A DNA stretch of 64,000 nucleotides from Choricystis sp. odSpoLacu1 (Eukaryota > Chlorophyta > Trebouxiophyceae): NCBI GenBank assembly GCA_958009055.1, contig OY253654.1:310001-374000 (forward strand), written 5' to 3'. The translations under genes and the position numbers were made by a program. Shown here piece by piece: positions 9,480 to 59,896 of this stretch; positions within the stretch are counted from its first letter, which is position 1, and every line of letters starts with the position of its first letter. The notes under the pieces are model-generated. The model saw only the letters and a program-made list of their open reading frames with translations, did not search any database and was not told where the DNA came from.

Positions 9480-9614
9480 GTGGGGGAGATTGTGTTCAGA
9501 GAAAAGGGGCGGAGAGAGAGGCGAATGCCTGGGAACAAAAGGAAAAACGTTCTGCCGACGGCGTCGTTTTTTTTTCATCGACCCCCACCAGCCCACACAC
9601 TCACTCGGCGCTGT

Positions 9615-19721: not shown

Positions 19722-19842
19722 GGCTAGCAAGTTGTGTCGAAAAAAAAAACTCACCTCTTTCCTCTTTCCGTCGCATCGGGGGGCGATGCGACGCTCCACC
19801 ACACTCGGCCCCGCTCACTGAGCGACCACACACACACGCCTC

Positions 19843-21366
19843 ATGAGCCGCCGCGTCGTCGTCACGGGGGTCGGCCTCGTCACGCCGCTCGGCCCCACCG
19901 CCCCCGCCACGTGGGCGCGCCTGCTGGCGGGGGAGACGGCGGTGCGAGCGTTGCGGCCGGAGGATCTGCCGCGTGTGAGTGGGGTGAAAGTGGGGGGAAA
20001 GGAAAGGAAACGCTGGGGGGGGCATCCAGTCGCTGCGCCTCCCCCACCACCCACCCCCCCTTTTCCACACAGGAACACGCCGCGGCCCTGCCCTACCTGC
20101 CCTGCCGCATCGGCGCCCCCGTGGACATCGCAGGTCTGGCGTCCCTGCGCCACGCGCCGGCGTGGCTGGTGACGCCACCCCCCGGTGCGACGCGCGCGTC
20201 CACTTTTGCAGTCACCGCCGCCTCGGAGGCGGTGGCAGCCGCCCGCCTGGACATCGCCTCCCTGCCCCCTGGCCGTGTCGCGGTGGCGGTGGGGGCGGGC
20301 ATGCCCGCCGTGCGCGCCGCGGCCGCGCTGGGGGCGGCGCTCTCCGCCCACGCGCCCCACCCCTGGCCCTCCGCCGCCTCCGTCGCCCGCCTGCTGGCCA
20401 GCGGCCCCGCGGCGGCTGTTGCGGCTGCACTAGGCATCACAGGAGGGCCACTGGACGCCCCTGCCACCGCCTGCGCCGCGGGCGCGAGCGCGGTCGCCGA
20501 CGCGGCGGCCGCCATCGCGGCGGGGGAGGCTGACGTGGCGCTGGCGGGGGGGGCGGAGGCGTGCGTGGACGCGGTGACGATCGCGGTTTTCAGTCGGTGA
20601 GAGAGGGAGAGAGAAAGGGAGACAGTGAGTGGACAAGGGTGTTGGGAAGAGAGCAGGGTGTTTGATTGTCTTGCTCTTGTTTTTCTTTATCCCCCAACAC
20701 TCCCCCCCACACAGCATGCGCGCCCTCACCATCGCCTTCAACGACGCCCCACACCACGCGTCCCGCCCCTTTGACGTTTCCCGCAGCGGCTTCGTGGTGG
20801 GGGAGGGGGCGGGCGTGCTGGTGCTGGAGGCGGAGAGTCACGCGGCCGCGCGCGGCGCAACGCCGCTCGCCACGCTGCTCGGCGTCAGCGCCTCCGCCGA
20901 CGCCCACCACGCCGCCCAGCCCCCCGCCGCGGGGGCGGGGGCTGCAGCCGCCATGCGGGCCGCTTTGCAGGCGGCGGGGCTGGGGCCGGGGGACGTGGGC
21001 CACGTCAGCGCGCACGCGACGTCGACCCCCGCGGGCGACGCAGCAGAAGCGGCCGCCCTGGGCACCGTGTTCTCCTCCTCCTCCTCCTCCTCCCGTCCCC
21101 TCGTCTCTGCCGTCAAATCCTCCATGGGCCACCTGCTGGGCGCCGCGGGCGCGGTGGAGGCGGGGTTGACAGTGCTGGCGCTGGTGCACGGGCGCGCGCC
21201 GCCGACGGCAGCGCTCGAGTGTGCGGGCGTGTCGCCACCGGGTGTCATCCTGGTGGGACAGGATGGCGTGGGCGGCGTGTTGCTGCGTCCAGGGTCGGCC
21301 GCGCTGTCCAACAGCTTTGGTTTTGGAGGGGGGAATGTTTGTTTGTTGTTCGCACCGCCGCACTGA
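19843..21366 (+). CDS. 3-oxoacyl-ACP synthase (FabF type), probably mitochondrial
   Basis: The enzyme condenses acyl-ACP with malonyl-ACP in type II fatty acid synthesis. Exons are 19843-19974, 20073-20596 and 20715-21366; all junctions are GT-AG and keep frame. The protein starts directly at the thiolase fold (MSRRVVVTGVGLVTPLG), with the active-site Cys in APATACAAGASA, the first active-site His in VSAHATSTPAGD, and the second in SSMGHLLGAAGAVEAG. The C-terminus has LSNSFGFGGGN. The lack of a long plastid transit peptide and the OXSM-like start suggest the mitochondrial enzyme that serves lipoate synthesis. Lipoate is needed by glycine decarboxylase, which fits the photorespiratory neighbours, but that link is inference. 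Confidence 0.9.
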
Positions 21367-21527: not shown

Positions 21528-23204
21528 TCACGCCGCCTTCTTCTCCGACCCCAGCCCCACGTCCGCCGCGTTCACAATGGACGGCGACTCGGCGGGGACG
21601 GCGTCCAGGGGCCCATCGACGAACGTGGGGGCGATGTCGTCACCGCTCCCCGTCCACACAGCCGCCCCGCGCAGCCGCCCCGCCACGTTGGCGGCGGCCA
21701 GGGTCGCCATCCCGCCCCGCGTCCACAGCGACGCGGACGCGATGTGGGGCACGATGACGGCGTTGGGGCAGTCGGCCAGGCCGGGGGCCATGGCGGGCTC
21801 GTTTTCAAACACGTCGAGACCCACGCGGAATTCAGGCGTCGCCTTCAAGTGAGCCACCAGGGCCACCTCATCGATGACGGGGCCACGCGCCGCGTTCACA
21901 AGGACGGCGTCAGGCTTCATCTTGCGCAGGCGGGCCGCGTTGATGAGGTGGCGGGTGTCGGCGTCCAGGTTGCAGTGCAGCGACACAACATCCGCGCGTT
22001 CCAACACTTCATCCACAGTCGCCACCCGCGTGATCGTCACCCGCCTCTCCCCCGACGCGGCCAGCAGGTCGCCATAGGCCGTGATGTAAGCCTCCAGCTT
22101 GGTGTTGGGGTAGGGGTCGTAGTAGACGATGTCCATCTTGTGCCCTTCCGCCATCATCCTCGCGTACGCGGCCCCAATCCGCCCCGCCCCGACAATGCCC
22201 ACCGTCTTGTTTTGGAGGAGGGCGCCGACGAAGAGGGTGGGGAGCCAGCCCTTGTACTGACCGGTGCGCATGAAGGTGTCGGCTTCCACGACGCGGCGCG
22301 CGGCGGAGAGGGTCAGCGCGGCAGCCAGTTCAGCCGTCGTTTCAGTCAGCACGCCGGGCGTGTTGCCGACAGGGACGCCGTGGCGAGTGGCGGCGGCGAC
22401 GTCCACGTTGTTGTAGCTGAGGTTGTTTGTGTGTGTGTGGGTGTTGGGCTTGATTTGCGTTTTTTCTTCTTTTTTTCAACGCTTCGTTTGTCCCACCCAC
22501 GCCATCAAACACTCACCCAACAGCGTAGTTGGAGTACACTTTGCCGCCCGCGGCTTTGAGGGTGCCAAACAGGTCGTCACCCCAGTCCTGGTGTGGAAAA
22601 AGAAAGAGGGTTGGTTGATGGTTTGCGTGTTTTTTTGTGTGTGTGCCTCTCCCCTTCCGCCCCACGCCCTCCACCCCCACACCACACTCTCACCTCCGTC
22701 AACTGCCCAATGACGCCGTCGCACTTCGTCCCGATCAACGACTTGATCTGGGGAATGGACAGAATGGTGTCCGGGGCGGTGCACACCTCGACGCGCGCCC
22801 CCGCGCGCGTCAGCAGGTGCAGCCACCTGTCCCCCGGCAGCGGCTTGGTGACGAGGACGCGGTGGGCGCCGGACTCGTTGTGGATCTGTATGGGTGTGTG
22901 TGTGTGGTGGGAGGGTGGTTTATGGGTGTGGGTGTTTTTTTTTTCGCGGCGTGAGAGGGTTTCCTGGCCGACCAATGCGAAGCGTGGGGGCGCGGTCTGC
23001 CCTCTCGCGCGGCGCCGTCCCCATTCCGCACGCCACGAGCCGCTCCTCTCCACTTTCTATCCCACGCACTTCCACGGGCAGGCCGCCCACGGTACCGGGG
23101 GTGCCAGCCATCGCGCGGCACTGGTGCGCGGACGTGCGCGCGGACACGGACGAGGACGAGGGGGTGAAGGCGCGAGCCAGCAGGCGAACGGTGGGGCGCA
23201 GCAT
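21528..23204 (-). CDS. HPR1: Hydroxypyruvate reductase, plant HPR1 type, mitochondrial presequence
   Basis: The enzyme reduces hydroxypyruvate to glycerate with NADH in photorespiration. Exons are 23204-23070, 22885-22694, 22587-22517 and 22416-21528, and every junction restores the plant HPR1 sequence order. Exon 1 encodes MLRPTVRLLARAFTPSSSS, an amphipathic, Arg-rich presequence absent from peroxisomal plant HPR1 and consistent with the mitochondrial HPR1 of Chlamydomonas. Family marks include GVIGQLTEDWG, GNTPGVLTETTAELAAAL, the dinucleotide site VGIVGAGRIGAAYARMM, NAARGPVIDEVALVAHL, GLDVFENEP and the catalytic His in VPHIASAS. The C-terminus lacks the peroxisomal SKL. Total about 428 residues. 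It lies head-to-tail with the SGAT gene, both on the minus strand. Confidence 0.94.
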
Positions 23205-23535
23205 GTGCTGAAGAAGGGGGGCGGAGGGGAGGGGAGCCGCGGGCGCGATGCAAAGAGAGAGAGAGCGGTGTGTGAGAGGTGTGTGAGAGAGAAGAGCCCG
23301 ACGCAGGAACGGGCGGCCGTGCCCTCGCTTCCCTGCCCCCCTCAAAAACCCTCCGACACCCCTCTCTCCTCCCCCCGTGTTGCGCCTAGAAAAAAAAGCA
23401 GTAACATAAAAGAATGGACCCCTCCCTCTCCCTCTCTCTCTCAACCTCTCTCTCTCCCTCACGCTCTCTCTCGCACAATCAACTTCCCGACCGATCACAC
23501 CACCACCACATGTTTTCTTTTTCCCCCATCACCAC

Positions 23536-25260
23536 TCACGCCAGCCCCCCGCACCGCGTGGGGATCGTCTTGGCCGTGTCCGCCCAGTACTTGACAGCGG
23601 CCCCAACCCCGCTGCCGGGCTCGATCCCGACGCCGGAGGCGAGGAGGGCCATCTCGGTGCCCGCGAGCGCCGAGGCCGACATGACCTCGTCCATGTTGCC
23701 CAGGTGCCCGATGCGGAAGACTTTGCCGGCGACCCTGGACAGCCCCACCCCAATCGACAGGTTGAACTTGGCGTACGCGGTGGCCACAATCTTGGCGGAG
23801 TCGATCCCGGCTGGCGTTTCGATCACGGTCAACGAGTCGGAGCGCCAGCGCGGGTGCTTGCACAGCAGCTTGAGCCCCCACGCGTCCACCGCTTTGCGGG
23901 TGCCCTCCGCCAGGCGGTGGTGGCGGGCGACCACGTTGTCGAAACCTTCGGCCTTGAGGAGGGCCAGGGATTCTTGCAGGCCATAGAGGAGGGGGATGGA
24001 GGGTGTGTAGGGCACGGAGCCCGCGGCATTCGTGGCGATCATGTCCTCCCAGTCGTAGTAGCACTTTTTCAGGCCCGCCGTCTTGCGCTTGGCGAGCGCT
24101 TTCTCCGACACGGCCAACAGGGCGAGGCCAGTGGGCAGGGAGAGCGCTTTCTGGGAGCCCGTGACGGCGACGTCGACGCCCCACTTGTCGAATTGGAAAT
24201 CCAGAGCCCCAATGCTCGACACACCATCCACCAGCAGCAGGGCGGGGTGGGACGACGCGTCCATGGCGGCGCGCACGCCGCCCACGTCGGACGTGACGCC
24301 GGTCGTGGTTTCGTTGTGAACCACAGCCACCGCCTTGATCTTTTTGTCGGTGTCGGCCGCGAGCACCTTGGCCAGCGCCTCCTCGTTGGCCCCCTCCCCC
24401 CACTCGCACTCGATGACGTGCACATCCAGCCCCAGCCTCTGCATCATGTCGATCCACAGGTGGGAGAACCGACCGTAGCGGAAGGTGACGATTTTGTCCC
24501 CCGGGGAGAGCGTGTTGGTGAGGGCCGACTCCCAACCGCCCGTGCCGGTGCCGGGGTAGATGAAGGTGGTGCCGTTGGTGGTGCCGAAGATCATCTGAGG
24601 GTGTGGGGAGGGTGGATGGGTGTGAGTGTGTGTGGGGAGAGAGAGAGAAGGTGTGGAGCAAACCAACCGACCGATCTCTTCTCTCGCTCACACCTTGGTG
24701 TCCTCCAAAATTTCCTTGAAGAAGGGCGCAAACCAGGGGTCGCGGTGATTCTGGGAGGGGCGGTCCATGGCGCGCATCACATTTTCGTGGATGTTGACGG
24801 GGCCTGAGGGCGAGGGAGGTGGGAGGAAAGGTTGGTGGAGAGGCAGGGCACCGGCGCACCGTGAGAGACTCGCGTGTGCGAGGTTTGGTTTGCCCCCTCT
24901 CCCCGCCACCTCTCCGTCTTCGCGTCCCTCCCACCATCCCCACTTGCACAAGCAGCACCGTGCGCCCTCGTTGGTGGGCGGGGCGTGAGTCGAGTCGCGC
25001 GTGCCGGGGCGCTGGCGGTTGCCCCAAAGAAAAAAACTAATGTTCGCTCGATTTGGCGCGCCTCTCCCAACCCCAGCCCTCTCCCCCCCCTCCACCAACA
25101 CAAACTCACCTGGAACAAACAAGTGGTTGCGCCCCGGCGGCGAGAACGAGTAGGGCGCGGCAGGCGCGCGCGTCGAGAGGCCACGCTTGCCTGTCGCGGC
25201 CGCGTCAGACGCGACCGTCAGGGCGCGCCTCGTCGCGTCCAGCAGGGCGCGACGCGTCAT
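23536..25260 (-). CDS. SGAT: Serine-glyoxylate aminotransferase (plant AGT1 type), mitochondrial presequence
   Basis: This class V PLP enzyme converts serine plus glyoxylate to hydroxypyruvate plus glycine, supplying the substrate of the neighbouring HPR1. Exons are 25260-25110, 24803-24694 and 24594-23536, giving about 439 residues. Exon 1 encodes TRRALLDATRRALTVAS and further Arg/Ser/Ala residues, a mitochondrial-type presequence. Then come GPVNIHENVMRAM, GTTNGTTFIYPGTGTGGWES, VVHNETTTGVTSDVG, the PLP lysine in VTGSQKALSLPTGLALL, and AGKVFRIGHLGNMDEVM. These follow plant SGAT in order. Plant SGAT is peroxisomal; the presequence here suggests the mitochondrion. It is divergent from the glycolate dehydrogenase gene. 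Confidence 0.94.
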
Positions 25261-25484
25261 GGTTGGTGAGTGTGTGTGTGTGTGTGGGGGGGGAGGGTAT
25301 CGTGGATCACACGCGGGGTAAGGCGCGGGCGCTGTTCTTTTGTTCGTCAGGTGTGAAGCCGAAGGGAGAGGAAAACCACTCACAAAGCGAACAAGCGTTC
25401 GTGTTTTGCTGGCCCGCCCTCTCTCTCGAACGCCGCGCGCCCTCTCTCTCGAACTTCCCGCCTCACCCACCCACCAATCCCCCA
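25261..25484. promoter_or_regulatory. Short divergent promoter between SGAT and glycolate dehydrogenase
   Basis: Only 224 bases separate the start codons of two consecutive pathway enzymes. A GT repeat lies at 25265-25290, and a direct repeat of CCCTCTCTCTCGAAC occurs at about 25417 and 25440. A shared, co-regulating promoter is inferred; no known CO2-response element is recognised. Confidence 0.45.
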
Positions 25485-28400
25485 ATGGACCGAGCGAAAG
25501 CCGCCCGCGCCCTGGCCCGCGCGGCCGCCCGCCTGTCGGACGGTCGGCGCGGGTCGTCGACCGCGACCACGCTCGGTGCCCCCCACCCTCCCCTTCCCCA
25601 CGCCCGTGGCTCGGCCGCGTCCGCCATGCCGGCCCCTGCCGCCTCCCCCTCCGACGGCGCGCCCTCGTTCACGCCGTACGCGCGCACCGCCCCAGTCGAA
25701 TCGATGGGGGTTAACACAGTGGGCGCGGTGTCGGCCGACGGGCTGCCGGCGCCCACGGCCTTCCGCAATGAGGACGGGCACCGCATTGAGGACGGGCGGT
25801 ACAAAGCGTTCCTGGATGACGTGGCGGTGCGGGCCGGGGTGCCTGTCGAACGCGTTTTTACCGACCCTCTGCACAGGTTTGCGTACGCAACGGACGCGTC
25901 CTTCTACCGCCTGGTGCCGCACGCCGTGATTAAGGTGAGAGTGTGTGCGATTGTGGGTGGGAGGGCGGCCGAGGGTGGGTTTGGGGGGCGAAAAGGGCCG
26001 CGCATTGACGCAGCGCGTGGCGCTCTCGAGCAACCTTCCTCCAACGATTTTTTCGGGAGAGCACGCACGAGCGCAGGCGCTTATCCACCCTGCGTGAGCT
26101 TGATCCACGCCTTTCCCCACTCTCACCACCCCCACGCACCCCCTCCTCTCCCATCAGATCGCCTCCGAGGCCGAAGTCGCCGTCATCCTGCCCATCGCGA
26201 CCAAACATGGCGTCCCGGTCACGTTCCGCGCGGCGGGCACCTCCCTCTCCGGCCAGGCCATCACCGACTCCGTCCTGCTGAAGCTGTCCCACGTGGGGAC
26301 CGCCTTCCGCAACTACGAGGTGCATGGCGACGGGTCCCGGGTGACGGTGGAGCCGGGGCTGATTGGGGGGGAGGTCAACGCGATCCTGGCTCGCCACGCC
26401 TCCCGCAACAAGCTGCCCGTCCAGTACAAGATTGGGCCCGACCCCTCCTCCATCGACTCGTGCATGGTGGGCGGCATCGTGTCCAACAACTCGAGTGGCA
26501 TGTGCTGCGGCGTCTCCCAAAACACGTACCACACGCTCGCCGACCTGCGCGCCGTGTTTGCCGACGGCACCGTCCTCGACACCGCCGATCCCGCATCTGT
26601 CGCTGCCTTCGAACGCTCCCACGCCACCCTGCTGGCCGGCGTCTCCGCCCTGGCGGCCAAGGTGCAGGCCGACCCCCAGCTGACTGCCCTTATTCGGCGC
26701 AAGTTTGCGATCAAGTGCACCACGGGTTACTCCCTCAACGCCCTCGTCGACTTCCCTGCCGACCGCCCCGTCGAGATCGTTAAGCGCCTGTTGATCGGGT
26801 CGGAGGGGACGCTGGCCTTCGTGTCGAGGGCCACCTACAACACCGTCCCCGACCTCCCCCACAAAGCGTCCGCCTTCGTCATGTTCCCCGACGTCCACGC
26901 CGCGTGCCAGGGGGCGTCCGTGCTGCGGGACGCGACAGCCGTGGACGCGGTGGAGATGTTTGACCGGCCGTCCCTGACGCAGTGTGCGAAGGACGACGCG
27001 ATGATCAAGCTGGTGCCCGACATGGAGGGCGCGGGCCCCCAGGCCGCCGCCCTCCTGATCGAGTGCCGGGGGGCGACCGCTGAGGCGTTAGCCGAACGCA
27101 TCGACGAAGTCAACCGCGCCCTGACGGCGGCGGGGCTGCCGTTTGGCCCGGCCCCCGGCGTGGACAAACCGCTCGACCACTACGCCTTTTCGCACGACTC
27201 CGGCGTGTGCAAAACCTACTGGGACGTGCGCAAGGGCCTCATCCCCATCGTGGGCGGCGCCCGGGAACCCGGCACGTCCATGCTGATTGAAGACGTGGCG
27301 TGCCCTGTGGACCGGCTGGCAGACATGACGGTGGATTTGGCCGCGATGTTTGAGCGCCACGGCTACGCGGAAGCCTCCTGCTTTGGCCACGCGCTGGAAG
27401 GCAACCTCCACCTCCTCTTTGCTCAAGGTTTCCGCTCCCCCGACGAAGTGCAACGCTTCAACGACATGATGGAGGAGATGTGCTGGATTGTGGCGACCAA
27501 GCACGGGGGGTCGCTCAAGGGTGAACACGGCACGGGGCGCAACGTCGCGCCTTTCGTTGAGATGGAGTGGGGCGCCAAAGCGTACGACCTCATGTGGGAG
27601 CTCAAGGAGATGTTCGATCCGGACTACGTGCTCAACCCGGGCGTCATTTTGAACAAGGTGAGTGGGGTTGGTGTGTGGGGGAGGAGGAGAAAGAGAGAGT
27701 TTTTTTTTTTTGTTTTGTTTTTTGTTTTTCCCACTCACCCACCCACCCCCCCTCCCCTCACACAGGACCCCGACGTTCACATCAAAAACCTAAAACCCTC
27801 CCCCCTGGCCTCCCCCCTCGTCGACCGCTGCATCGAGTGCGGCTTCTGCGAGTCCAACTGCCCGTCCCGCGACGCCGCGCTGACGCCGCGCCAGCGCATC
27901 ACGTCCTACCGCGAGCTGGCCCGCCTGAAAGCGGTCAGCGTGGGCGATCGCACCCCCGCTGAAGCGGAGCGCCTGACCGCGCTGTCGGCCGCGTTCGAGT
28001 ACGCGGGCAAAGAGATGTGCGCGGCCGACGGGATGTGCCAGGTCAAGTGCCCCGTCAAAATCAACACGGGGGACCTCGTCAAGTCGCTGCGCGCGCAGGA
28101 TGCGGCGGCCGCCCCCCGCGCCTCCGCCCTGGCGGACACGCTGGCCACCCACATGGCGGGCGTGGTGCGCGGTGGTGGCGCGCTGTTGAGCGTGGTCGAC
28201 GCCGCGCGCCGCGTGCTGGGCGCGGGCACGCTGGAAACCGTGTCCACCGCCCTCAACAAGTGGTCTGGACGCGTCGTGCCCACCTACAACCGCTACATGC
28301 CGACGGGGGCGCCCCCCCTGCCGGCCAGCGTGCCGTCCGCGTCGACCGTGGCCGCGGCCGACGCGTCGACCGCCGCCGACGCGGCCGCCCAGCCCGCCCG

Positions 28401-29220
28401 CCGCCGCGCCGTATACATGCCGTCCTGCGTGACCAGGATGATGGGGCCTGCCGGGACGGATGCCGTCAAGACGACGCCGCCCGCTGCTCTTGTCTCTCTG
28501 GCGGAGAAGGCGGGGTACGCACTCGTCTACCCCGACAACATCGCCTCCCTCTGCTGCGGCATGATGCTTGGGTCCAAAGGGTTCAACACCGCTGCCGACA
28601 CGGCTGCGTCGGCCGCTGAGGCGGCCCTGATGGCGGCGTCCGAGGGGGGCAAGCTGCCGATCGTGTGCGACACGTCGCCGTGCGTGCAGACGCTGAAAGA
28701 CAAGCTGGCTGGCGGCCCTCTGAAGTTTGCGCTCTACGAGCCCGCCGGCTTTGTGCGCCACTTCCTGGAGCCCCGGCTCGACTTCACCCCGGTGCGGGAC
28801 ACGGTGGCGGTGCACGTGCCGTGCTCCTCCAAGAAGATGGGGGTGACGGCCGACGTCGAGCGCCTGGCGGCGCGCGCGGCACACGCTGTCGTCCCCTCCG
28901 GCGTCCCCTGCTGCGGCATGGCGGGGGATCGTGGCATGCGCTACCCCGAGCTGACGGGGGGGGCGCTGCAGCACCTAGACACGAAGGGGTGCTCGGAAGG
29001 GTGAGTGAGGGTTGTGGGAGGTGGGTGGTGGTGGGTCGCCGCTCTCTTTCACCCTCTTTCTCTTTCTCACCCCCCTCTTCCTCTCACCCACCCACACAGC
29101 TACTCCACCTCGCGCACGTGCGAGATGTCGCTGTCCAACCACTCGGGCATCCACTTCCGGTCCCTGCTGACGCTGCTGGATGAGGCGGCGACGCCGAAGA
29201 AGGCCGAACCGACGGCGTGA
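25485..29220 (+). CDS. GYD1: Glycolate dehydrogenase, fused flavoprotein plus Fe-S protein (GYD1 type)
   Basis: The enzyme oxidises glycolate to glyoxylate in the mitochondria of green algae. Exons are 25485-25934, 26158-27657, 27766-29000 and 29100-29220, giving 1101 residues, close to Chlamydomonas GYD1. After a basic presequence (MDRAKAARALARAAARLSDG) the FAD-binding half shows VTFRAAGTSLSGQAI, KIGPDPSSIDSCMVGGIVSN, IGSEGTLAFV and KGEHGTGRNVAPFVE. The Fe-S half has two ferredoxin-like clusters, CIECGFCESNCP near residue 672 and CAADGMCQVKCPV near 735, and two CCG motifs (SLCCGMML, PCCGMAGD). The same architecture is used by D-lactate dehydrogenases; the neighbouring SGAT and HPR1 genes favour glycolate as substrate. 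The frame is intact throughout. Confidence 0.93.
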
Positions 29221-29623
29221 GCAAAAACGCGGTCAGGGGCGTGTGCATTCCATTGTTTGTTTGTTTAGAGAGAGCGAGCGAGCGAGAGACTTTCCCCCAT
29301 TCTTTTTTTTCCTTTCGTTTTCCTTTCTTTTTTGATCGTGGTGTTTTTTGGTGGGGAGGAGAGAGGAGGAAAGAGAGAGAGCCAGAGCGAGAGACCGCGA
29401 ACGTGTGTTGTGTCGGAAGAGTGGGGGGCGAGCCGGGCTTCCCCGCCGTCCCCCCTCTGCCGCCTCACACCTCGCCTCCAAACCACACCAAACGTAGGGC
29501 GACAGTGCAAACCATCTCAGAGTTGACACATACACACACAAAGCCAGAGAGGCGGTTCGTTGAACAGAAGATCGTTTTTTTTTCGCTCGACTCACACACT
29601 CGCAAAAAAAACGAACTTTTTTA
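29221..29623. other. Intergenic region between GYD1 and AGXT-type gene
   Basis: These 403 bases lie between two co-directional cluster genes. The plus strand is rich in GA repeats at 29265-29290 and 29350-29400. It should contain the 3' UTR of the dehydrogenase and the promoter of the aminotransferase. No gene is seen. Confidence 0.4.
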
Positions 29624-31511
29624 ATGTCTTCCAACAACGCCGCCCGCCGCCTCCTGGCCACCCTCGCCGCGCGCGGGGCGGGCGCCCGCGGCGTGTCGAC
29701 AACCCTCCCCGCGGGAGCCAGCACCGGGGCGAGGCCGGGGGAGGCGACGCCCGCGCTGATCAAGGCGGTCGGGCCAAAGGGCGTGATTGACGTGAGTGTT
29801 TGGGGTGTGGGGGTGACACCGCCCGCCTCCCGCGCATTGCGCAGTGGGCGTGCAATGTGGGCCAGGGCGGCGTGGGATGAGGGAGGGGCGCGGCAGCAGC
29901 CCGCCCCTTTGTGTTTCGATCGGCTTGTGGCTTGCCGGTGCGAAAAACGTGGGCGCGTCCCCGGCCCCTCTCTCCACTGTTGCCCCCCGCCCTCGCGAGT
30001 CCTGTGCATGCATGTGCACACAGTGCGCGCTGGCGGCGGTGTGCGCCGTGCAGGCGTTGGCGTGGCCGCACGCGCGTGTTTTTTTTCGGCGTTGGTGTTT
30101 TTGGTCGACCAAACAGCACGCGCCCTCCTATCGCCCAAGGCTGCGCCGGCGCCCACACTCCCAGCGGCTGCCACACAGTTGTGTAGCGAAAGGGGGGCAT
30201 GGGAGGCAGGAGACCAAAGCGCGGTTGCCAGAGAAGACCGCGCATTTTTCGTCACCCTCTCTTCGAACCACCGCCCGTCACCCTCACCTAACCACCCACC
30301 ACCACCCCAGGTCCCGCCTCGCCTCCTCATGGGCCCCGGCCCCGCCAACGTCTACCCCCGCGTCCTGGCGGCTCAAACGCTGCCGTTGCTGGGCCACCTG
30401 CACCCTCCCTTTGTCAAAATCATGGACGAGATTCGGGACGGGCTGCGCTACGTGTTTCAAACCAAAGACAACACTGTGTGCCTGATGTCGGGCACCGGCC
30501 ACGCGGGCATGGAGGCGTGCATCACCAACCTGCTGGAACCCGGGGAGACGATCGTGGTGGGCAACGCGGGGATCTGGGGGTCGCGTGTGTGTGACATGGC
30601 CGCCCGTTACGGTGCAAAAGTCGTCCCCCTGGAAACGCCCTCCGGCACCACCTTCGACATCGACACGCTGGCGTCCGCGCTGCGCACCCACAAGCCCGCC
30701 GTCCTGTTCTTGTGCCAGGGTGAATCCTCCACGGGTGTCCACCAAAACCTGGCGGGGCTCGGCGACCTGTGCCGCGAGACGGGCACACTGCTGCTCGTCG
30801 ACACCGTGTGCTCGCTGGGGGGCGTCCCCATGTACGCGGACGCGTGGGGGGTGGACGCCATCTACTCCGGGTCGCAAAAAGTGTTGTCAGGCCCGCCGGG
30901 CGCGGCGCCCCTGTTCTTTGGGGAGCGCGCGATGGCCAAACTGCACTCCCGCAAAACCAAGCCCACGTCCTACCAACTGGACCTCAACCTGGTGGGCAAC
31001 TACTGGGGGTGGGATGGACCCCGCACGTACCACCACACGGGTAGGTTGAGGAGTGGAGAGAGGGTTTTTTGTGCAGTCATTTTTTTCTTCGGTTTTTCTT
31101 CACCACCCTCCCCCTCCCTTCCCCACAGGCATGGTCTCCACCTGGTACGCCATGCGGGAAACCCTGGCCATCGTGTCCGACACAGGGCTCGACACCATGT
31201 GGGCCAACCACGCGCGCCTGCACGCCACGCTCTGGGAAGGCCTCCGTTCCCTGGGCCTCCACCCCTACGTCAAGAAAGACGCCGACCGCCTGGCCACCGT
31301 CAACACTATCTCCGTCCCCGACGGCGTGGACTGGGCCGCCGTCATCAAGCACGCCATGGACAAGTTTGGTGTCGAGATCTCGGGCGGTCTCGGCCCGTCG
31401 GCGGGCAAGGTGTGGCGCGTCGGCATCATGGGCTACAACGCCACCGACGCCAACGTGGCCCTCGTGCTGGACGCGTTCAAGGATGGACTCAAGGCGCAGG
31501 GCAAGGCGTGA
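29624..31511 (+). CDS. AGXT: Alanine-glyoxylate aminotransferase (AGXT type), mitochondrial presequence
   Basis: This PLP enzyme turns glyoxylate into glycine, with alanine or serine as amino donor. Exons are 29624-29791, 30311-31040 and 31129-31511, giving 426 residues. The N-terminus SSNNAARRLLATLAARGAGA is a likely mitochondrial presequence. The body follows the animal and bacterial AGXT pattern rather than the plant SGAT pattern: LLMGPGPANVYPRVLAAQ, LGHLHPPFVKIMDEI, MSGTGHAGMEACITNLL, GESSTGVHQNL, the PLP lysine in YSGSQKVLSGPPG, and GVEISGGLGPSAGKVWR followed by GIMGYNAT. It is therefore not a recent copy of the SGAT gene on the other side of the dehydrogenase. Donor specificity (alanine or serine) cannot be read from sequence. 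Confidence 0.92.
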
Positions 31512-31755
31512 AGAGAGAGTTGGTGTTGGGTGGGGAGAGCGAGCGAGCGAGATTTTTCTATTTTTTGTGTTGAGAAACCACCCCCAGAAAAAGCCTTCTC
31601 TCTGTGTGTGTGTGTGTCTCTCTCTCCTACAAAAAGGAATTGTGTCTCTCACAGTCAACGTCGTGGGATGCAAAAAAAATCAAGTGCGTTTATGTGTTTT
31701 TTCGATGGGCAGAAAAGGGACAAGGAGACGAAAAACAAATCAACTAAAAAAGCAA

Positions 31756-33146
31756 TCAACCGTCCGCCAGCACAACGCCCGCCTCCGCCGACTTCCTGTT
31801 CAGCATGGTCGTCACCTTGTCCACGGTCAGCAGCATGACGCCGTTGGCGGGGACGGCGCGCAGCAGGCAGGGGGTGAACCCCCGGTAGAAGCGCTTGACA
31901 CCGCCCTCCGCCCAGAGCGCGCGCGCGGCGGCCAGGGGGCCCGCGTACGCGCGCTGGGCCGGGAAGATCGAGTCCGACTGCACCGCCGACTTGACGACGT
32001 CCACAGGGAAGATGGCCAGCCAGTAGAGGAGGCCACCGATGCCGGCGGCGGAAATGATGGCGGGAGCAGGCAGGTCGGCCGGCGCACATTCCAGCTGCCT
32101 GGCAAACCGGTTCTTCAACACTTCAAACGAGCCCAGGTAGACCGCGTTGGCGGGCGTGTTGCGGACGAGGGTGACGCCGAGGCCCTGTGGAAGGGAAGGA
32201 GGGTTGGGTGTTGGTGTGCGAAAAAACAACAACAAAAAAACATCAACCCACCCTCCCTCTCTCTCTCCCTCCACTCTCACCTGGAACGGCCCCCGCATCC
32301 CGCTCTGCGCCAGCGTTGCCTTCACGCACGCCCCCACCGTGGTGTAGGGGGCGACATACGCGGGGTCTGCCCGCGCGCGCACCGTCTGCACCTGGATCTG
32401 GGACTTGTAAAAATCGATGGGCCCCTCCGCAAACGCGGCCACCGCCCCCGTGATGGCGCCCACCTGGAAGTATTGAGCATCGGTCAGGGGGCGGGCGCCG
32501 TTGCCGGACAGGGCGCGCTTGGCTTCGCCAAACGCGCCAAAGAGGGTGGCGCGGAACACCATTTGACCCGCGAGAGGGGAGGCGACGCCCTTGTAGAGGC
32601 CGCCCACGCCCTCCCATGCCAGGGTCTTGCGCACGCAGTCGAGGACGCCGGCTGGTGGGGAGAAGGGGAAGGTGCGTGAGTGTGATCGCTTCTCGCATCA
32701 AAAACCAGATCACGAAACGCCCATCAAGACCCCCCCACCACCACCCCCCACACGCACAATACACGGGGTTGACACTCGGCTGCGTCTGCAGGCGCACTTT
32801 GACGGTGTCAAACGGGTGGCCGACCAGGGTGACCGCGATGCCGCCTGGGTGTGGGTGATAGAGGAGGGTTGAAGCGTGTGAGTGTTTGTCGGGTGAAGAG
32901 CGTGAGTGGTTTACTCGATTGCGGGCCGCGGTGGCGGGCGCGGCCGCCACCCTTCTGCCCCACGATGAGTGTTGAGCTTGATCATTCGCAATGCGGGCAC
33001 CACAGGGAGCGCGGGTCCAGCGTGAGGCGCCAACCGCCAGACCGACTCGACACAAACAACAAAATCCACGCACCGCACGTCCCGGCAAAGATGTCGTTGG
33101 CCACTTTGGCGGCACCGCCGTGGGGTGGGGGGCCGGGCTTGGACAT
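31756..33146 (-). CDS. Mitochondrial carrier protein (SLC25 family), basic amino acid/carnitine-type branch
   Basis: The protein should move a small solute across the mitochondrial inner membrane. Exons are 33146-33074, 32844-32758, 32651-32281 and 32184-31756, giving 319 residues in three repeats of about 100. Carrier signatures are HPFDTVKVRLQ with EGVGGLYKG (repeat 1), EGPIDFYKSQIQVQ (repeat 2) and FPVDVVKSAVQSD with RFYRGFTPCLLRAVPANGVML (repeat 3). The start FAGTCGGIAVTLVGHPFDTVK resembles the acylcarnitine/ornithine branch, which includes plant BOU, a carrier needed for photorespiration. Position beside glyoxylate and glycine enzymes suggests transport of a C2-cycle amino acid, but substrate cannot be read from sequence. 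It is divergent from the RraA gene. Confidence 0.88.
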
Positions 33147-33299
33147 TGGTGTCAATGCGCTGCGTGTGTGGAGGGGCGGGACGGCTGGAGGCGGGGGCGT
33201 CTCTGCTCACCGATTCGGAGAAAGCAGAGCGAGACTGAGCGTTGCGAAAAACAACCCTCCACACACACTCCCCATCCCCCATTCCACACTGCTGCGCAT
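33147..33299. promoter_or_regulatory. Short divergent promoter, carrier / RraA-like
   Basis: Only 153 bases separate the two divergent start codons, so the promoters must overlap or be shared. No known motif is recognised. Confidence 0.35.
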
Positions 33300-34039
33300 A
33301 TGCTCTCCCTGCGCCGCCTGTTCACGGCGACCACCCTCACGCCCTTGTCTTCCGCCCTGCGCATGATGGCGACTGCCCCCACCACCAACCAGTTCCCCCC
33401 CCCCGACGCGGCCCGCGGCGCGACTGCCGACCTGTGCGACGTGCACTACCCCGACCCCGTGGACGTGGTCGTGGGCGCGCCCAAAGTGCAGATCGCGGCC
33501 CCCGTGTTTCGGTGAGGAAAAGAAGGGAGGAAGGCTGGGGGGGGCTTTTGTGTGTGTGCCGTCGTCGCCGTGGCAACCCACACACTTACACCCCTCCCTC
33601 TCCTCCCACCCACACCCCTACACTTAGCGACTTCGGCGGCCGCCTCGCCTTCTCCGGCCGCGCCGCCACCGTCAAGTGCTTCGAGAACAACCCCCTCGTC
33701 CGCGCCACCCTGGAAGAACCCGGCGCCGGCCGCGTCCTCGTCGTCGATGGCGGCGCCTCCCTGCGCTGCGCCCTGCTGGGCGACAACATCGCCGCCATGG
33801 CCGTGGCCAACGGGTGGTCCGGCATCCTCATCAACGGCTGCATCCGCGACTCGCTCGACATCTCAAAAATGGATCTGGGCGTGAAAGCTCTCGCCACCTT
33901 CCCCCTCAAATCCTCCAAGCGGGACCCGGGGTTGCGCGACGTGCCTGTGTCGTTTGCGGGGGTGACGGTGACGCCGGGCGACTGGGTGTACGCGGATGGG
34001 GATGGCGTGCTGGTGTCCAAAGACGAGTTGACGCCGTGA
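33300..34039 (+). CDS. RraA-family aldolase/decarboxylase with mitochondrial-type presequence
   Basis: Members of this family are 4-hydroxy-4-methyl-2-oxoglutarate aldolases and oxaloacetate decarboxylases; bacterial RraA itself inhibits RNase E. Exons are 33300-33511 and 33628-34039, giving 207 residues. The start MLSLRRLFTATTLTPLSSAL looks like a mitochondrial presequence. The family core is clear: VLVVDGGASLRCALLGDN, the AVANGWSGILINGCIRD segment with the substrate-binding Arg-Asp, and the metal-site region PGDWVYADGDGVLVS. Catalytic residues of the aldolase branch are present, so an enzyme is more likely than a pure RNase regulator. Its place at the end of the photorespiratory block is notable, but its substrate is unknown. 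Confidence 0.85.
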
Positions 34040-58104: not shown

Positions 58105-59739
58105 TCAGTGTTGGCTCCACTGAATCGTCTTCAAGTCGACTCCCTCCTGCACGAGCTCCCACAGCGGGCTCATCTCGCGCAGCTTGGTCACGCGCGCCAC
58201 GGTCAGCGCGGCGGCGCGGTCGACTTCGGCAGCTGTCGTGAAGCGGCCGAGCCCAAACCGCACGCTCGTGTGCGCCATCTCTTCATCCACGCCCAGGGCG
58301 CGCAGCACGTAGGAGGGTTCCAGGGAGGCGGAGGTGCAGGCCGACCCCGAGGAGACGGCCAGGTCTTTGAGGCCCATGAGGAGGGACTCGCCCTCCACGT
58401 ACGCAAACGACAGGTTGACACAGGACGGCAGCCGGTTGCTGGCCGCCAGGGGGGGCCCATTCAGCACGACGCCGTCCAGGGCCTCCGTGATGGAGGCGTG
58501 CAGGCGGTCGGCCAGGGCGCGGGCGTGGGCGGCGTCGGCGGCCATCTCGCGCGCCGCGATCTGGGCGGCCGCCCCCAGCCCGACAACGAGGGGCGTTGGC
58601 ACCGTGCCCGACCGCAGCCCCCGCTCCTGGCCGCCCCCGCTCATTTGAGCCTCCAGGCGGACGCGGGGGCGGCGGCGGACGTAGAGGGCGCCGACTCCCT
58701 TGGGGCCGTACAACTTGTGCCCCGAAAGCGAAAGCAAGTCGATGTTGTCCGCATCCACGTTCACAGGCACCTTGCCCGCCGCCTGGGCGGCGTCCGTGTG
58801 GAAGAAGGCGCCCGCCGCGCGAGCCAGGGCCCCGATTTCGGCCAGGTTTTGGAGGACGCCGATCTCATTGTTGGCCGCCATGACACTGACCAACGCCGTC
58901 TCCCCCGGGCGCAACGCGGCTTTGTAGGCGTCCATGTCCAGGGAGCCGTCCGGGTGGACAGGCACGTACGTCACGTCAAAGCCGCGGGCTTGGAGGGAGC
59001 GGCACGCGTCCAGGACGCACTTGTGGTCGGTCACACATGTGATGACATGTTTTTTTGATCCCCCATAGAAGCCCGCCACCCCCTTGACCGCCAGGTTGTT
59101 GGCCTCGGTCGCGCCAGACGTGAACACAATCTCCTTGGGGTGGGCGCCAATCAGTGAAGCCACGTGGGCACGTGCAGACTCGATTGCGTCTTCGGCTTCC
59201 CACCCGTACACGTGGGTGCGGGAGTGGGGGTTGCCAAAGCCGTCGGTCAGGTGGGGGAGCATGGCGTCCAGGACGCGGGGGTCGAGGGGGGTGGTGGCCT
59301 GAGAGTGGGGGAGTGGTGGTGGTGTGAGTGGTGGGCGGTCGAGGGGCGGTCGCCACCTCTTCTTCTCCTCTCTCTCCACTATCACACACCTGCATGTCCA
59401 GGTACACGGGAGCCCCCGCCAGGCGGATGCCTTTGGCCTCGATTTCGTCGGGGCCGAGGGGGGGGTCGGCGAAGTCTGGAGGAAGGAAGAATGGGGGGCG
59501 TGCGTCTGTGGGCGGCGCCACCGCGCGGGCTGGCATTCCCCGCACACAACCAACCCACTGAGCCTGCCACGCAAGCACGGGGCGGGCGGGCGCGGGCAAC
59601 AGCACTCTGTCCACAGTTTGCCCTCCCACTCACCAGCGACTGCCGACGCGGCGCCATGCGTCGCGGCGCCGCCGCCCGCGCGCCGCGCGGCGGCTGCCAG
59701 GGCGGCACCGGCTGCGCGGCGGGCAAGTCCGGTCAGCAT
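58105..59739 (-). CDS. NFS1: Cysteine desulfurase NFS1, mitochondrial
   Basis: NFS1 takes sulfur from cysteine for Fe-S cluster assembly. Exons are 59739-59634, 59475-59390 and 59298-58105, giving 461 residues. The presequence is [20 protein letters not shown]. Marks of the group I desulfurases: [83 protein letters not shown], the PLP lysine in [17 protein letters not shown], and the catalytic Cys loop [17 protein letters not shown]. The C-terminus [18 protein letters not shown] is typical of eukaryotic NFS1. The catalytic residues are all present. It also bears on the cluster, since glycolate dehydrogenase needs Fe-S clusters. Confidence 0.96.
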
Positions 59740-59896
59740 TTGGGGCTTGAGAGGGTTTAGGAGGGGGGGGGAAAGGGTGCGGCAAACAAACGCCGACGTG
59801 GGTGTGTGCCTGCACAGACCCTCCAATTCCTTTTTCTCTCTGCGCCTCGGAAGCCAAGCGCGCACACAACCTTGGCCCCGCGTTCACCGCCAAACA

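What the first reader, a model, noticed from the sequence alone, without database searches (positions are those of the whole stretch)
21528..34039. Photorespiratory gene cluster in a eukaryotic nuclear genome
Six adjacent genes: hydroxypyruvate reductase, serine-glyoxylate aminotransferase, glycolate dehydrogenase, AGXT-type aminotransferase, a mitochondrial carrier and an RraA-family enzyme. The first four are consecutive or parallel steps of the C2 cycle: glycolate to glyoxylate, glyoxylate to glycine, serine to hydroxypyruvate, hydroxypyruvate to glycerate. All four have predicted mitochondrial presequences, matching the green-algal mitochondrial C2 cycle. In model plants and Chlamydomonas I know of no clustering of these genes. 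Gene identities are read from sequence; the cluster as a functional unit is inference.
Basis: partly seen in the sequence, partly recalled or inferred. Interest (0 to 1): 0.87.

Follow-up and report, generated by a model that had tools for sequence, protein, structure and literature searches.

The report
Green-algal photorespiration gene cluster
Six neighbouring nuclear genes of a tiny green alga encode enzymes that recycle a wasteful by-product of photosynthesis, plus a membrane carrier of unknown cargo; clusters of this kind were already reported in green algae, and the carrier is the part worth testing.

Summary
Window 21528-34039 holds six complete, intron-bearing genes with gaps of 153-403 bp: HPR, SGAT, GYD, AGXT, a mitochondrial carrier and an RraA-family protein. 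The host is a chlorophyte with a compact genome (14.6 Mb, window GC 70%, two rbcS genes). The other C2-cycle genes I sought lie on other contigs.

The clustering is not chance. Carrier, AGXT and HPR share contigs in other green algae far more often than a length-offset control allows. Carrier and HPR have consecutive locus tags in Chlamydomonas schloesseri and Astrephomene; carrier and AGXT do in Parachlorella. In C. reinhardtii, GYD1, SHMT2, AGT1 and HPR1 are all on chromosome 6. Linkage is incomplete, and GYD, SGAT and RraA could not be tested in relatives this way.

It is not new in kind.

The best lead is the carrier. It is conserved across the green algae listed, differs from this genome's BOU-like carrier, and has the carboxylate-type RN pair at contact point II. 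I propose that it moves a photorespiratory carboxylate, perhaps glycolate in and glycerate out. No transport, targeting or expression data were available.

The parts
21528..23204 (-). HPR, hydroxypyruvate reductase, 428 aa, exons 23070-23204, 22694-22885, 22517-22587, 21528-22416
23536..25260 (-). SGAT, serine-glyoxylate aminotransferase, 439 aa, exons 25110-25260, 24694-24803, 23536-24594
25261..25484 (.). 224-bp divergent intergenic region between SGAT and GYD start codons
25485..29220 (+). GYD, glycolate dehydrogenase type (FAD + Fe-S), 1101 aa, exons 25485-25934, 26158-27657, 27766-29000, 29100-29220
29624..31511 (+). AGXT, alanine-glyoxylate aminotransferase type, 426 aa, exons 29624-29791, 30311-31040, 31129-31511
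31756..33146 (-). SLC25 mitochondrial carrier of unknown cargo, 319 aa, exons 33074-33146, 32758-32844, 32281-32651, 31756-32184; contact point II is R185-N186
33147..33299 (.). 153-bp divergent intergenic region between carrier and RraA start codons
33300..34039 (+). RraA-family protein with basic N-terminus, 207 aa, exons 33300-33511, 33628-34039; D-X20-R-D at residue 123

Best explanation
This is a green-algal nuclear gene neighbourhood for the mitochondrial half of the C2 cycle, inherited vertically and packed tightly in a compact genome. GYD oxidises glycolate to glyoxylate and passes electrons to the respiratory chain. AGXT (alanine donor) and SGAT (serine donor) turn glyoxylate into glycine. 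SGAT yields hydroxypyruvate, which HPR reduces to glycerate. GDC and SHMT, which join the two halves, are encoded elsewhere. The carrier most likely moves a photorespiratory carboxylate across the inner membrane. RraA may act on a 2-oxo acid. Shown here: gene identities, adjacency, recurrent linkage of carrier, AGXT and HPR in other green algae, and carrier residues. From papers: mitochondrial glycolate oxidation in Chlamydomonas and an earlier cluster of the same pathway. Inferred: co-regulation, mitochondrial targeting in this species, carrier cargo, RraA role.
For: Gene models and families. Exact shared contig lengths between homologue lists (contigs of 3 kb or more): carrier-AGXT 9, carrier-HPR 9, AGXT-HPR 8, against means of 0.02-0.04 and a maximum of 1 over 1000 length offsets (lists). 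Consecutive locus tags: carrier/HPR in Chlamydomonas schloesseri (HYH02_000122/000121) and Astrephomene (Agub_g14609/g14610); carrier/AGXT in Parachlorella kessleri (009574/009575). Chlamydomonas uses a mitochondrial glycolate dehydrogenase (PMC7020209 and PMC11548211, passages). Two rbcS genes in this genome.
Against: No expression, localisation or assay data. Linkage is incomplete: carrier-HPR 7 of 10 informative assemblies, carrier-AGXT 6 of 13 (6 of 16 if three rows dropped as paralogues are counted as misses), AGXT-HPR 4 of 11 (hand tally). Pedinophyceae YPF-701 has all three on different contigs. In C. reinhardtii SGAT is on chromosome 1 and GYD1 is about 135 locus steps from HPR1. GYD, SGAT and RraA linkage was not tested by sequence outside this genome. 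The AGXT tree does not resolve which relatives' copies are orthologous to the window's. AGXT and RraA N-termini have a low amphipathic moment. Some bacterial relatives of GYD sit beside lactate permeases or DctM transporters, so D-lactate is a possible second substrate.
Confidence: 0.7

Rival explanations
1. The four enzymes form the real neighbourhood, and the carrier, RraA or both are bystanders with unrelated cargo and function.
For: Neither has an assigned substrate. RraA's best NCBIfam match, above its cut-off, is the bacterial ribonuclease E activity regulator model.
Against: For the carrier: consecutive tags with HPR in C. schloesseri and Astrephomene and with AGXT in Parachlorella, and linkage to HPR in 7 of 10 informative assemblies. 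RraA shares a 153-bp divergent intergenic region with the carrier and has a basic N-terminus, which is weak evidence.
Confidence: 0.25
2. Chance adjacency in a gene-dense genome.
For: The genome is compact (14.6 Mb), so short gaps are expected.
Against: Four consecutive genes of one pathway are very unlikely by chance (about 1e-7 if some 15 pathway genes were scattered among an assumed 7000; my rough estimate, not a tool result). Linkage of carrier, AGXT and HPR recurs in other green algae.
Confidence: 0.03
3. A bacterial operon acquired by horizontal transfer.
For: GYD has full-length relatives in many bacteria (37 loci, 34-48% identity in the best segment).
Against: All six genes have introns and lie on mixed strands. 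Every named hit that I recognise in the 120-row lists for carrier, AGXT and HPR is a green alga. In 10 neighbour ORFs from 6 of the 37 bacterial GYD loci I saw lactate permease (2), DctM (2) and other genes, no AGXT or HPR; the other 31 loci were not examined.
Confidence: 0.02

Closest known systems
Photorespiration gene cluster of Picochlorum (Foflonker et al. 2016) and the conserved green-algal neighbourhoods of Foflonker & Blaby-Haas 2020 (PMC7826186)
   Same: Clustered photorespiration genes in green-algal nuclear genomes. The 2020 paper recaptures five earlier clusters, photorespiration among them, and reports significant co-expression in C. [quoted passage not shown]
   Different: Cluster membership is not in the text I could read (Table 1 is blank in the held text; the 2016 paper is not held), so I cannot say which of the six genes are shared.
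Chlamydomonas reinhardtii chromosome 6 photorespiration loci
   Same: Five of the 17 genes in PMC8320531 Table 2 carry chromosome 6 numbers: GYD1 (as GDH), GDC-H, SHMT2, AGT1 and HPR1. AGT1 and HPR1 are 16 steps apart if numbers rise by 50 (recalled); C. incerta shows a tag distance of 16 for AGXT and HPR.
   Different: Loose linkage; SGAT on chromosome 1; GYD1 about 135 steps from HPR1. The window packs four enzymes into 10 kb.
BOU (A BOUT DE SOUFFLE), the photorespiration-linked mitochondrial glutamate carrier of Arabidopsis
   Same: SLC25 carrier tied to photorespiration (PMC8146403, passages).
   Different: BOU has RE at contact point II (PMC6769469, passages); the cluster carrier has RN. 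This genome has another carrier on C2 that reads RE there; I call it BOU-like from recall of BOU, not from a comparison run here.
RraA / HMG aldolase family (PF03737)
   Same: 156 bits to PF03737, 205 bits to TIGR01935, above its cut-off; a D-X20-R-D motif (its meaning is recalled).
   Different: Spliced eukaryotic gene with a basic N-terminus, beside glyoxylate enzymes. Activity unknown.

Membership tests
Conserved green-algal photorespiration gene neighbourhood | Several C2-cycle genes adjacent in a nuclear genome | tested here: met
   HPR, SGAT, GYD and AGXT consecutive.
Conserved green-algal photorespiration gene neighbourhood | Same gene pairs near each other in another class of green algae | tested here: met
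   Carrier/HPR consecutive tags in C. schloesseri and Astrephomene; AGXT/HPR 16 tags apart in C. incerta. Only three of the six genes could be tested, and not all assemblies show it.
Conserved green-algal photorespiration gene neighbourhood | Same member genes as the published cluster | not testable with these tools
   Membership is not in the held text; the 2016 paper is not held.
Conserved green-algal photorespiration gene neighbourhood | Co-expression of members | not testable with these tools
   No expression data for this genome.
Chlorophyte mitochondrial C2 cycle | Glycolate dehydrogenase of FAD + Fe-S type | tested here: met
   FAD_binding_4, FAD-oxidase_C and Fer4_8 in one 1101-aa protein. 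Orthology to C. reinhardtii GYD1 was not tested.
Chlorophyte mitochondrial C2 cycle | Mitochondrial location of the enzymes | tested here: inconclusive
   Basic N-termini on five of the six proteins, low amphipathic moment for AGXT and RraA; no localisation predictor or experiment.
BOU-type glutamate carrier | Amino-acid type contact point II, R[DE] | tested here: not met
   RN in the window protein; over 121 aligned rows the first position is R in 120 and the second N in 118, D in 2, R in 1. Parachlorella has RD.
Carboxylate-type SLC25 carrier | R[QHNT] at contact point II | tested here: met
   The window's RN aligns with RN of UCP2, named as contact point II in PMC6769469. The rule has exceptions: UCP2 and AtUCP1/2 have RN and also move aspartate or glutamate.

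The most novel reading that the evidence does not exclude
The cluster carrier is the missing mitochondrial carrier of the green-algal C2 cycle, exchanging glycolate in for glycerate out (or a nearby pair such as glyoxylate, hydroxypyruvate or pyruvate). A mitochondrial RraA protein manages glyoxylate by reversible aldol condensation with pyruvate, or removes a related 2-oxo acid. The neighbourhood then encodes an import, conversion and export module.
Probability: 0.22. Interest if true: 0.75.

Novelty: new member of a known kind. Interest (0 to 1): 0.45.

Why it matters
Chlorophytes oxidise glycolate in mitochondria, so glycolate must enter and a product must leave. In the passages I read (after the search) no mitochondrial carrier was named for this, and a 2021 review calls even the plant mitochondrial glycine and serine carriers unknown. 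A conserved carrier linked to HPR and AGXT gives a single-gene candidate that can be tested in Chlamydomonas. The window also shows how tightly pathway genes can be packed in a very small green-lineage genome.

Tried and rejected
Horizontal transfer of a bacterial operon: disfavoured by introns, mixed strands, the named hits and the bacterial neighbours examined. Carrier as the BOU orthologue: set aside on contact point II and on a second carrier with RE on C2. Second AGXT copies as extra clusters: the C14 copy lacks a basic N-terminus, and its flanks were fetched but not searched for families; the C17 piece lies on a 26-kb contig whose first 9 kb have 41% GC, probably foreign. Host as Medakamo hakoo: 15.8 Mb, 18 contigs and 72.7% GC in PMC9871001 (passages) against 14.59 Mb and 19 contigs here, so left open. 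Papers naming Cre06.g295400 or Cre06.g295500, the presumed neighbours of HPR1: none found. Rfam on the window at gathering score: no match. Structure prediction was not run; contact points were mapped by sequence alignment.

How the synteny tally was made: only named assemblies with both proteins among the 120 listed hits were counted, plus one unnamed EukProt set whose ids share a numbering style (same species assumed). Left out of carrier-AGXT: Coccomyxa elongata, Micractinium tetrahymenae and C. viridis g10976, because the listed AGXT falls in a clade of unlinked paralogues (partly circular, hence 6 of 16 is given too); Monoraphidium neglectum (short contigs); Chlorella vulgaris and Auxenochlorella (the two hits seem to come from different assemblies). 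Haematococcus was counted as a miss although its hits may be from different assemblies. Left out of carrier-HPR: Volvox and Scenedesmus (different assemblies or strains) and unnamed g-numbered EukProt ids. A first count missed one carrier contig of 3,357 bp; one search repeats it with all lengths.
Full report
What is there. The window is part of a green-algal nuclear genome: G000, 14,593,115 bases in 19 contigs, window = C6:310001-374000; window GC 69.7%. Two RuBisCO small-subunit genes lie on contig C6, so the organism is taken to be photosynthetic. Every named hit that I recognise for carrier, AGXT and HPR is a green alga (120 best rows each, many unnamed). One HPR hit, P0253, is 97% identical over 69% of the query and sits on a 134,879-bp ENA contig, so a very close relative has been sequenced elsewhere. 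No call named the species.

Gene models. HPR (-) 21528-23204, 428 aa, 4 exons; SGAT (-) 23536-25260, 439 aa, 3 exons; GYD (+) 25485-29220, 1101 aa, 4 exons; AGXT (+) 29624-31511, 426 aa, 3 exons; carrier (-) 31756-33146, 319 aa, 4 exons; RraA (+) 33300-34039, 207 aa, 2 exons. All 14 introns run GT...AG and no model has an internal stop. The models rest on reading frames and homology; no transcript data were seen. Families are confirmed by Pfam, NCBIfam (run on SGAT, GYD, AGXT and RraA) and PDB sequence searches (GYD not searched there). SGAT also resembles BhcA (542 bits, below that model's cut-off of 650), but its best solved match is a serine--glyoxylate aminotransferase. SGAT/GYD and carrier/RraA are divergent pairs with 224 and 153 bp between start codons.

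N-termini. In the first 30 residues HPR has 5 basic and 0 acidic residues, SGAT 6 and 2, GYD 7 and 2, AGXT 4 and 0, RraA 3 and 0; the maximal amphipathic moment is 0.54, 0.59, 0.55, 0.27 and 0.32. The first three look like mitochondrial presequences; AGXT and RraA are weaker. Chloroplast targeting is not excluded.

Rest of the pathway in this genome. SHMT is on C8 in two places, GDC-P on C5, GCV_T on C13 (274 bits) with a weaker match on C8 (75 bits), Hydrolase_6 genes (PGP candidates) on C15, C12 and C10. Glycerate kinase was not sought. RraA has no second copy. AGXT has a paralogue on C14 and a fragment on C17. One strong FMN_dh match stands on C4; in Chlamydomonas the GOX-like protein prefers L-lactate (PMC7020209, passages). 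So the cluster holds four C2-cycle enzymes, not the whole cycle.

Linkage in other green algae. The protein search gives no genome context, but it prints the longest contig's length and, for some hits, a locus tag. Exact length matches between the 120-row lists for contigs of 3 kb or more (46 carrier, 55 AGXT, 55 HPR distinct lengths): carrier-AGXT 9, carrier-HPR 9, AGXT-HPR 8; all three on 3 contigs. With lengths shifted by 1 to 500 bp either way, the means are 0.021, 0.034 and 0.041 and the maximum 1. Several matches are long contigs, where sharing a contig is weak evidence by itself. Tags are stronger. Consecutive: carrier/HPR HYH02_000122/000121 (C. schloesseri), Agub_g14609/g14610 (Astrephomene) and gene10018/gene10019 (an unnamed EukProt set); carrier/AGXT N2152v2_009574/009575 (Parachlorella kessleri, HPR at 009589). 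Near: AGXT/HPR ABPG77_007851/007856 (Micractinium CCAP 211/92) and HXX76_011954/011938 (C. incerta); carrier/AGXT CVIRNUC_003943/003932 (Coccomyxa viridis) and WDW38_005150/005173 (Sanguina). That tags follow gene order is an assumption; for the WJX-tagged assemblies they seem not to, and there I used contig length alone.

Counts with the misses (hand tally). Carrier-HPR linked in 7 of 10 informative assemblies (misses Elliptochloris, Pedinophyceae YPF-701, Ulva). Carrier-AGXT linked in 6 of 13 (misses C. eustigma, UWO 241, Astrephomene, YPF-701, Monoraphidium minutum, Haematococcus, the EukProt set); 6 of 16 if three rows set aside as paralogues are counted. AGXT-HPR linked in 4 of 11 (misses Elliptochloris, YPF-701, M. 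minutum, Astrephomene, Scenedesmus PABB004, Botryococcus, the EukProt set). The tally is post hoc; exclusions are under Tried and rejected.

AGXT tree (47 rows). In Coccomyxa viridis and in Micractinium, the linked copy falls outside a well supported clade that holds the unlinked paralogue. The window's AGXT groups only with two metagenome proteins (99/89); its deeper place is unresolved and the bootstrap had not settled. So that the window copy is orthologous to the linked copies is likely but not shown by this tree.

Chlamydomonas reinhardtii. PMC8320531 Table 2 (passage) lists 17 photorespiration genes; five carry chromosome 6 numbers: GDC-H Cre06.g253350, GYD1 Cre06.g288700, SHMT2 Cre06.g293950, AGT1 Cre06.g294650, HPR1 Cre06.g295450. 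SGAT is Cre01.g005150. If numbers rise in steps of 50 (recalled), AGT1 and HPR1 are 16 steps apart, the tag distance of AGXT and HPR in C. incerta.

What was known. Foflonker & Blaby-Haas 2020 (PMC7826186; outline, section 5 and passages) compared ten green algae, found 317 conserved neighbourhoods and recaptured five clusters reported before, one for photorespiration (Foflonker et al. 2016). They report significant co-expression in C. [quoted passage not shown] which four is not said in the text I saw. PMC12198440 (passages) repeats that Picochlorum SENEW3 has a photorespiration cluster. I could not see which genes those clusters hold. Hence 'new member of a known kind'.

The carrier. All 121 aligned rows (window plus 120 hits) keep R87, F91, E129, P131, D133, K136, Q138, R286 and P289-A290-N291. 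At contact point II the first position is R in 120 rows and the second N in 118, D in 2, R in 1. PMC6769469 (passages) gives contact point II as G[IVLM] for nucleotides, R[QHNT] for carboxylates and R[DE] for amino acids, and says that BOU has RE while UCP2 and AtUCP1/2 have RN. The window's RN aligns with the RN of UCP2. Because those RN carriers also move aspartate or glutamate, the class call is a lean, not a proof; and Parachlorella, where the carrier is next to AGXT, has RD. The best-scoring other carriers of this genome are 42% (over 133 residues), 33%, 34% and 32% identical, and the one on C2 reads REVPGN at this place. The carrier is therefore a distinct green-algal type. Mitochondrial C2 chemistry needs glycolate import and product export, which is why I propose that pair; exchange of glutamate, alanine or dicarboxylates for the amino-group supply is the main alternative.

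RraA. It carries D-X20-R-D, which I recall as a signature of aldolase-competent members of this family; no paper on it was read. A glyoxylate-related aldol reaction is speculation.

GYD. Its relatives in prokaryotes (37 loci) include, in 10 neighbour ORFs from 6 loci, lactate permease (2), DctM (2) and other genes. D-lactate is thus a possible second substrate. Orthology with C. reinhardtii GYD1 was not tested.

Verdict. A real, non-random, partly conserved photorespiration neighbourhood, of a kind already in print, with a good candidate carrier attached.

Noticed in passing
G000:C17:1-9000 (L034): The first 9 kb of this 26-kb contig have 41% GC against 68-71% in six other stretches fetched, and hold an AGXT-like piece; the contig is probably from another organism.
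   Followed up: partly
G000:C15:189127-205098: A Hydrolase_6 gene (phosphoglycolate phosphatase candidate) and the genome's second FAD-oxidase_C gene lie about 15 kb apart.
   Followed up: no
G000:C2:907627-908433 (L035): Another mitochondrial carrier, BOU-like as far as I recall BOU, with RE at contact point II.
   Followed up: partly
G000:C6:144327-144668 and 259155-259496: Both RuBisCO small-subunit matches found are on the same contig as the photorespiration cluster.
   Followed up: no
window 58105-59883 (-): An open frame with a weak class V aminotransferase-like match to AGXT (36.6 bits).
   Followed up: no
window 19728-21366 (+): A beta-ketoacyl synthase gene (for its first part) ends 161 bp before the end of HPR, convergent with it.
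   Followed up: no
ENA contig of 134,879 bp behind P0253: It encodes an HPR 97% identical over 69% of the query, so a very close relative is in a public assembly.
   Followed up: no
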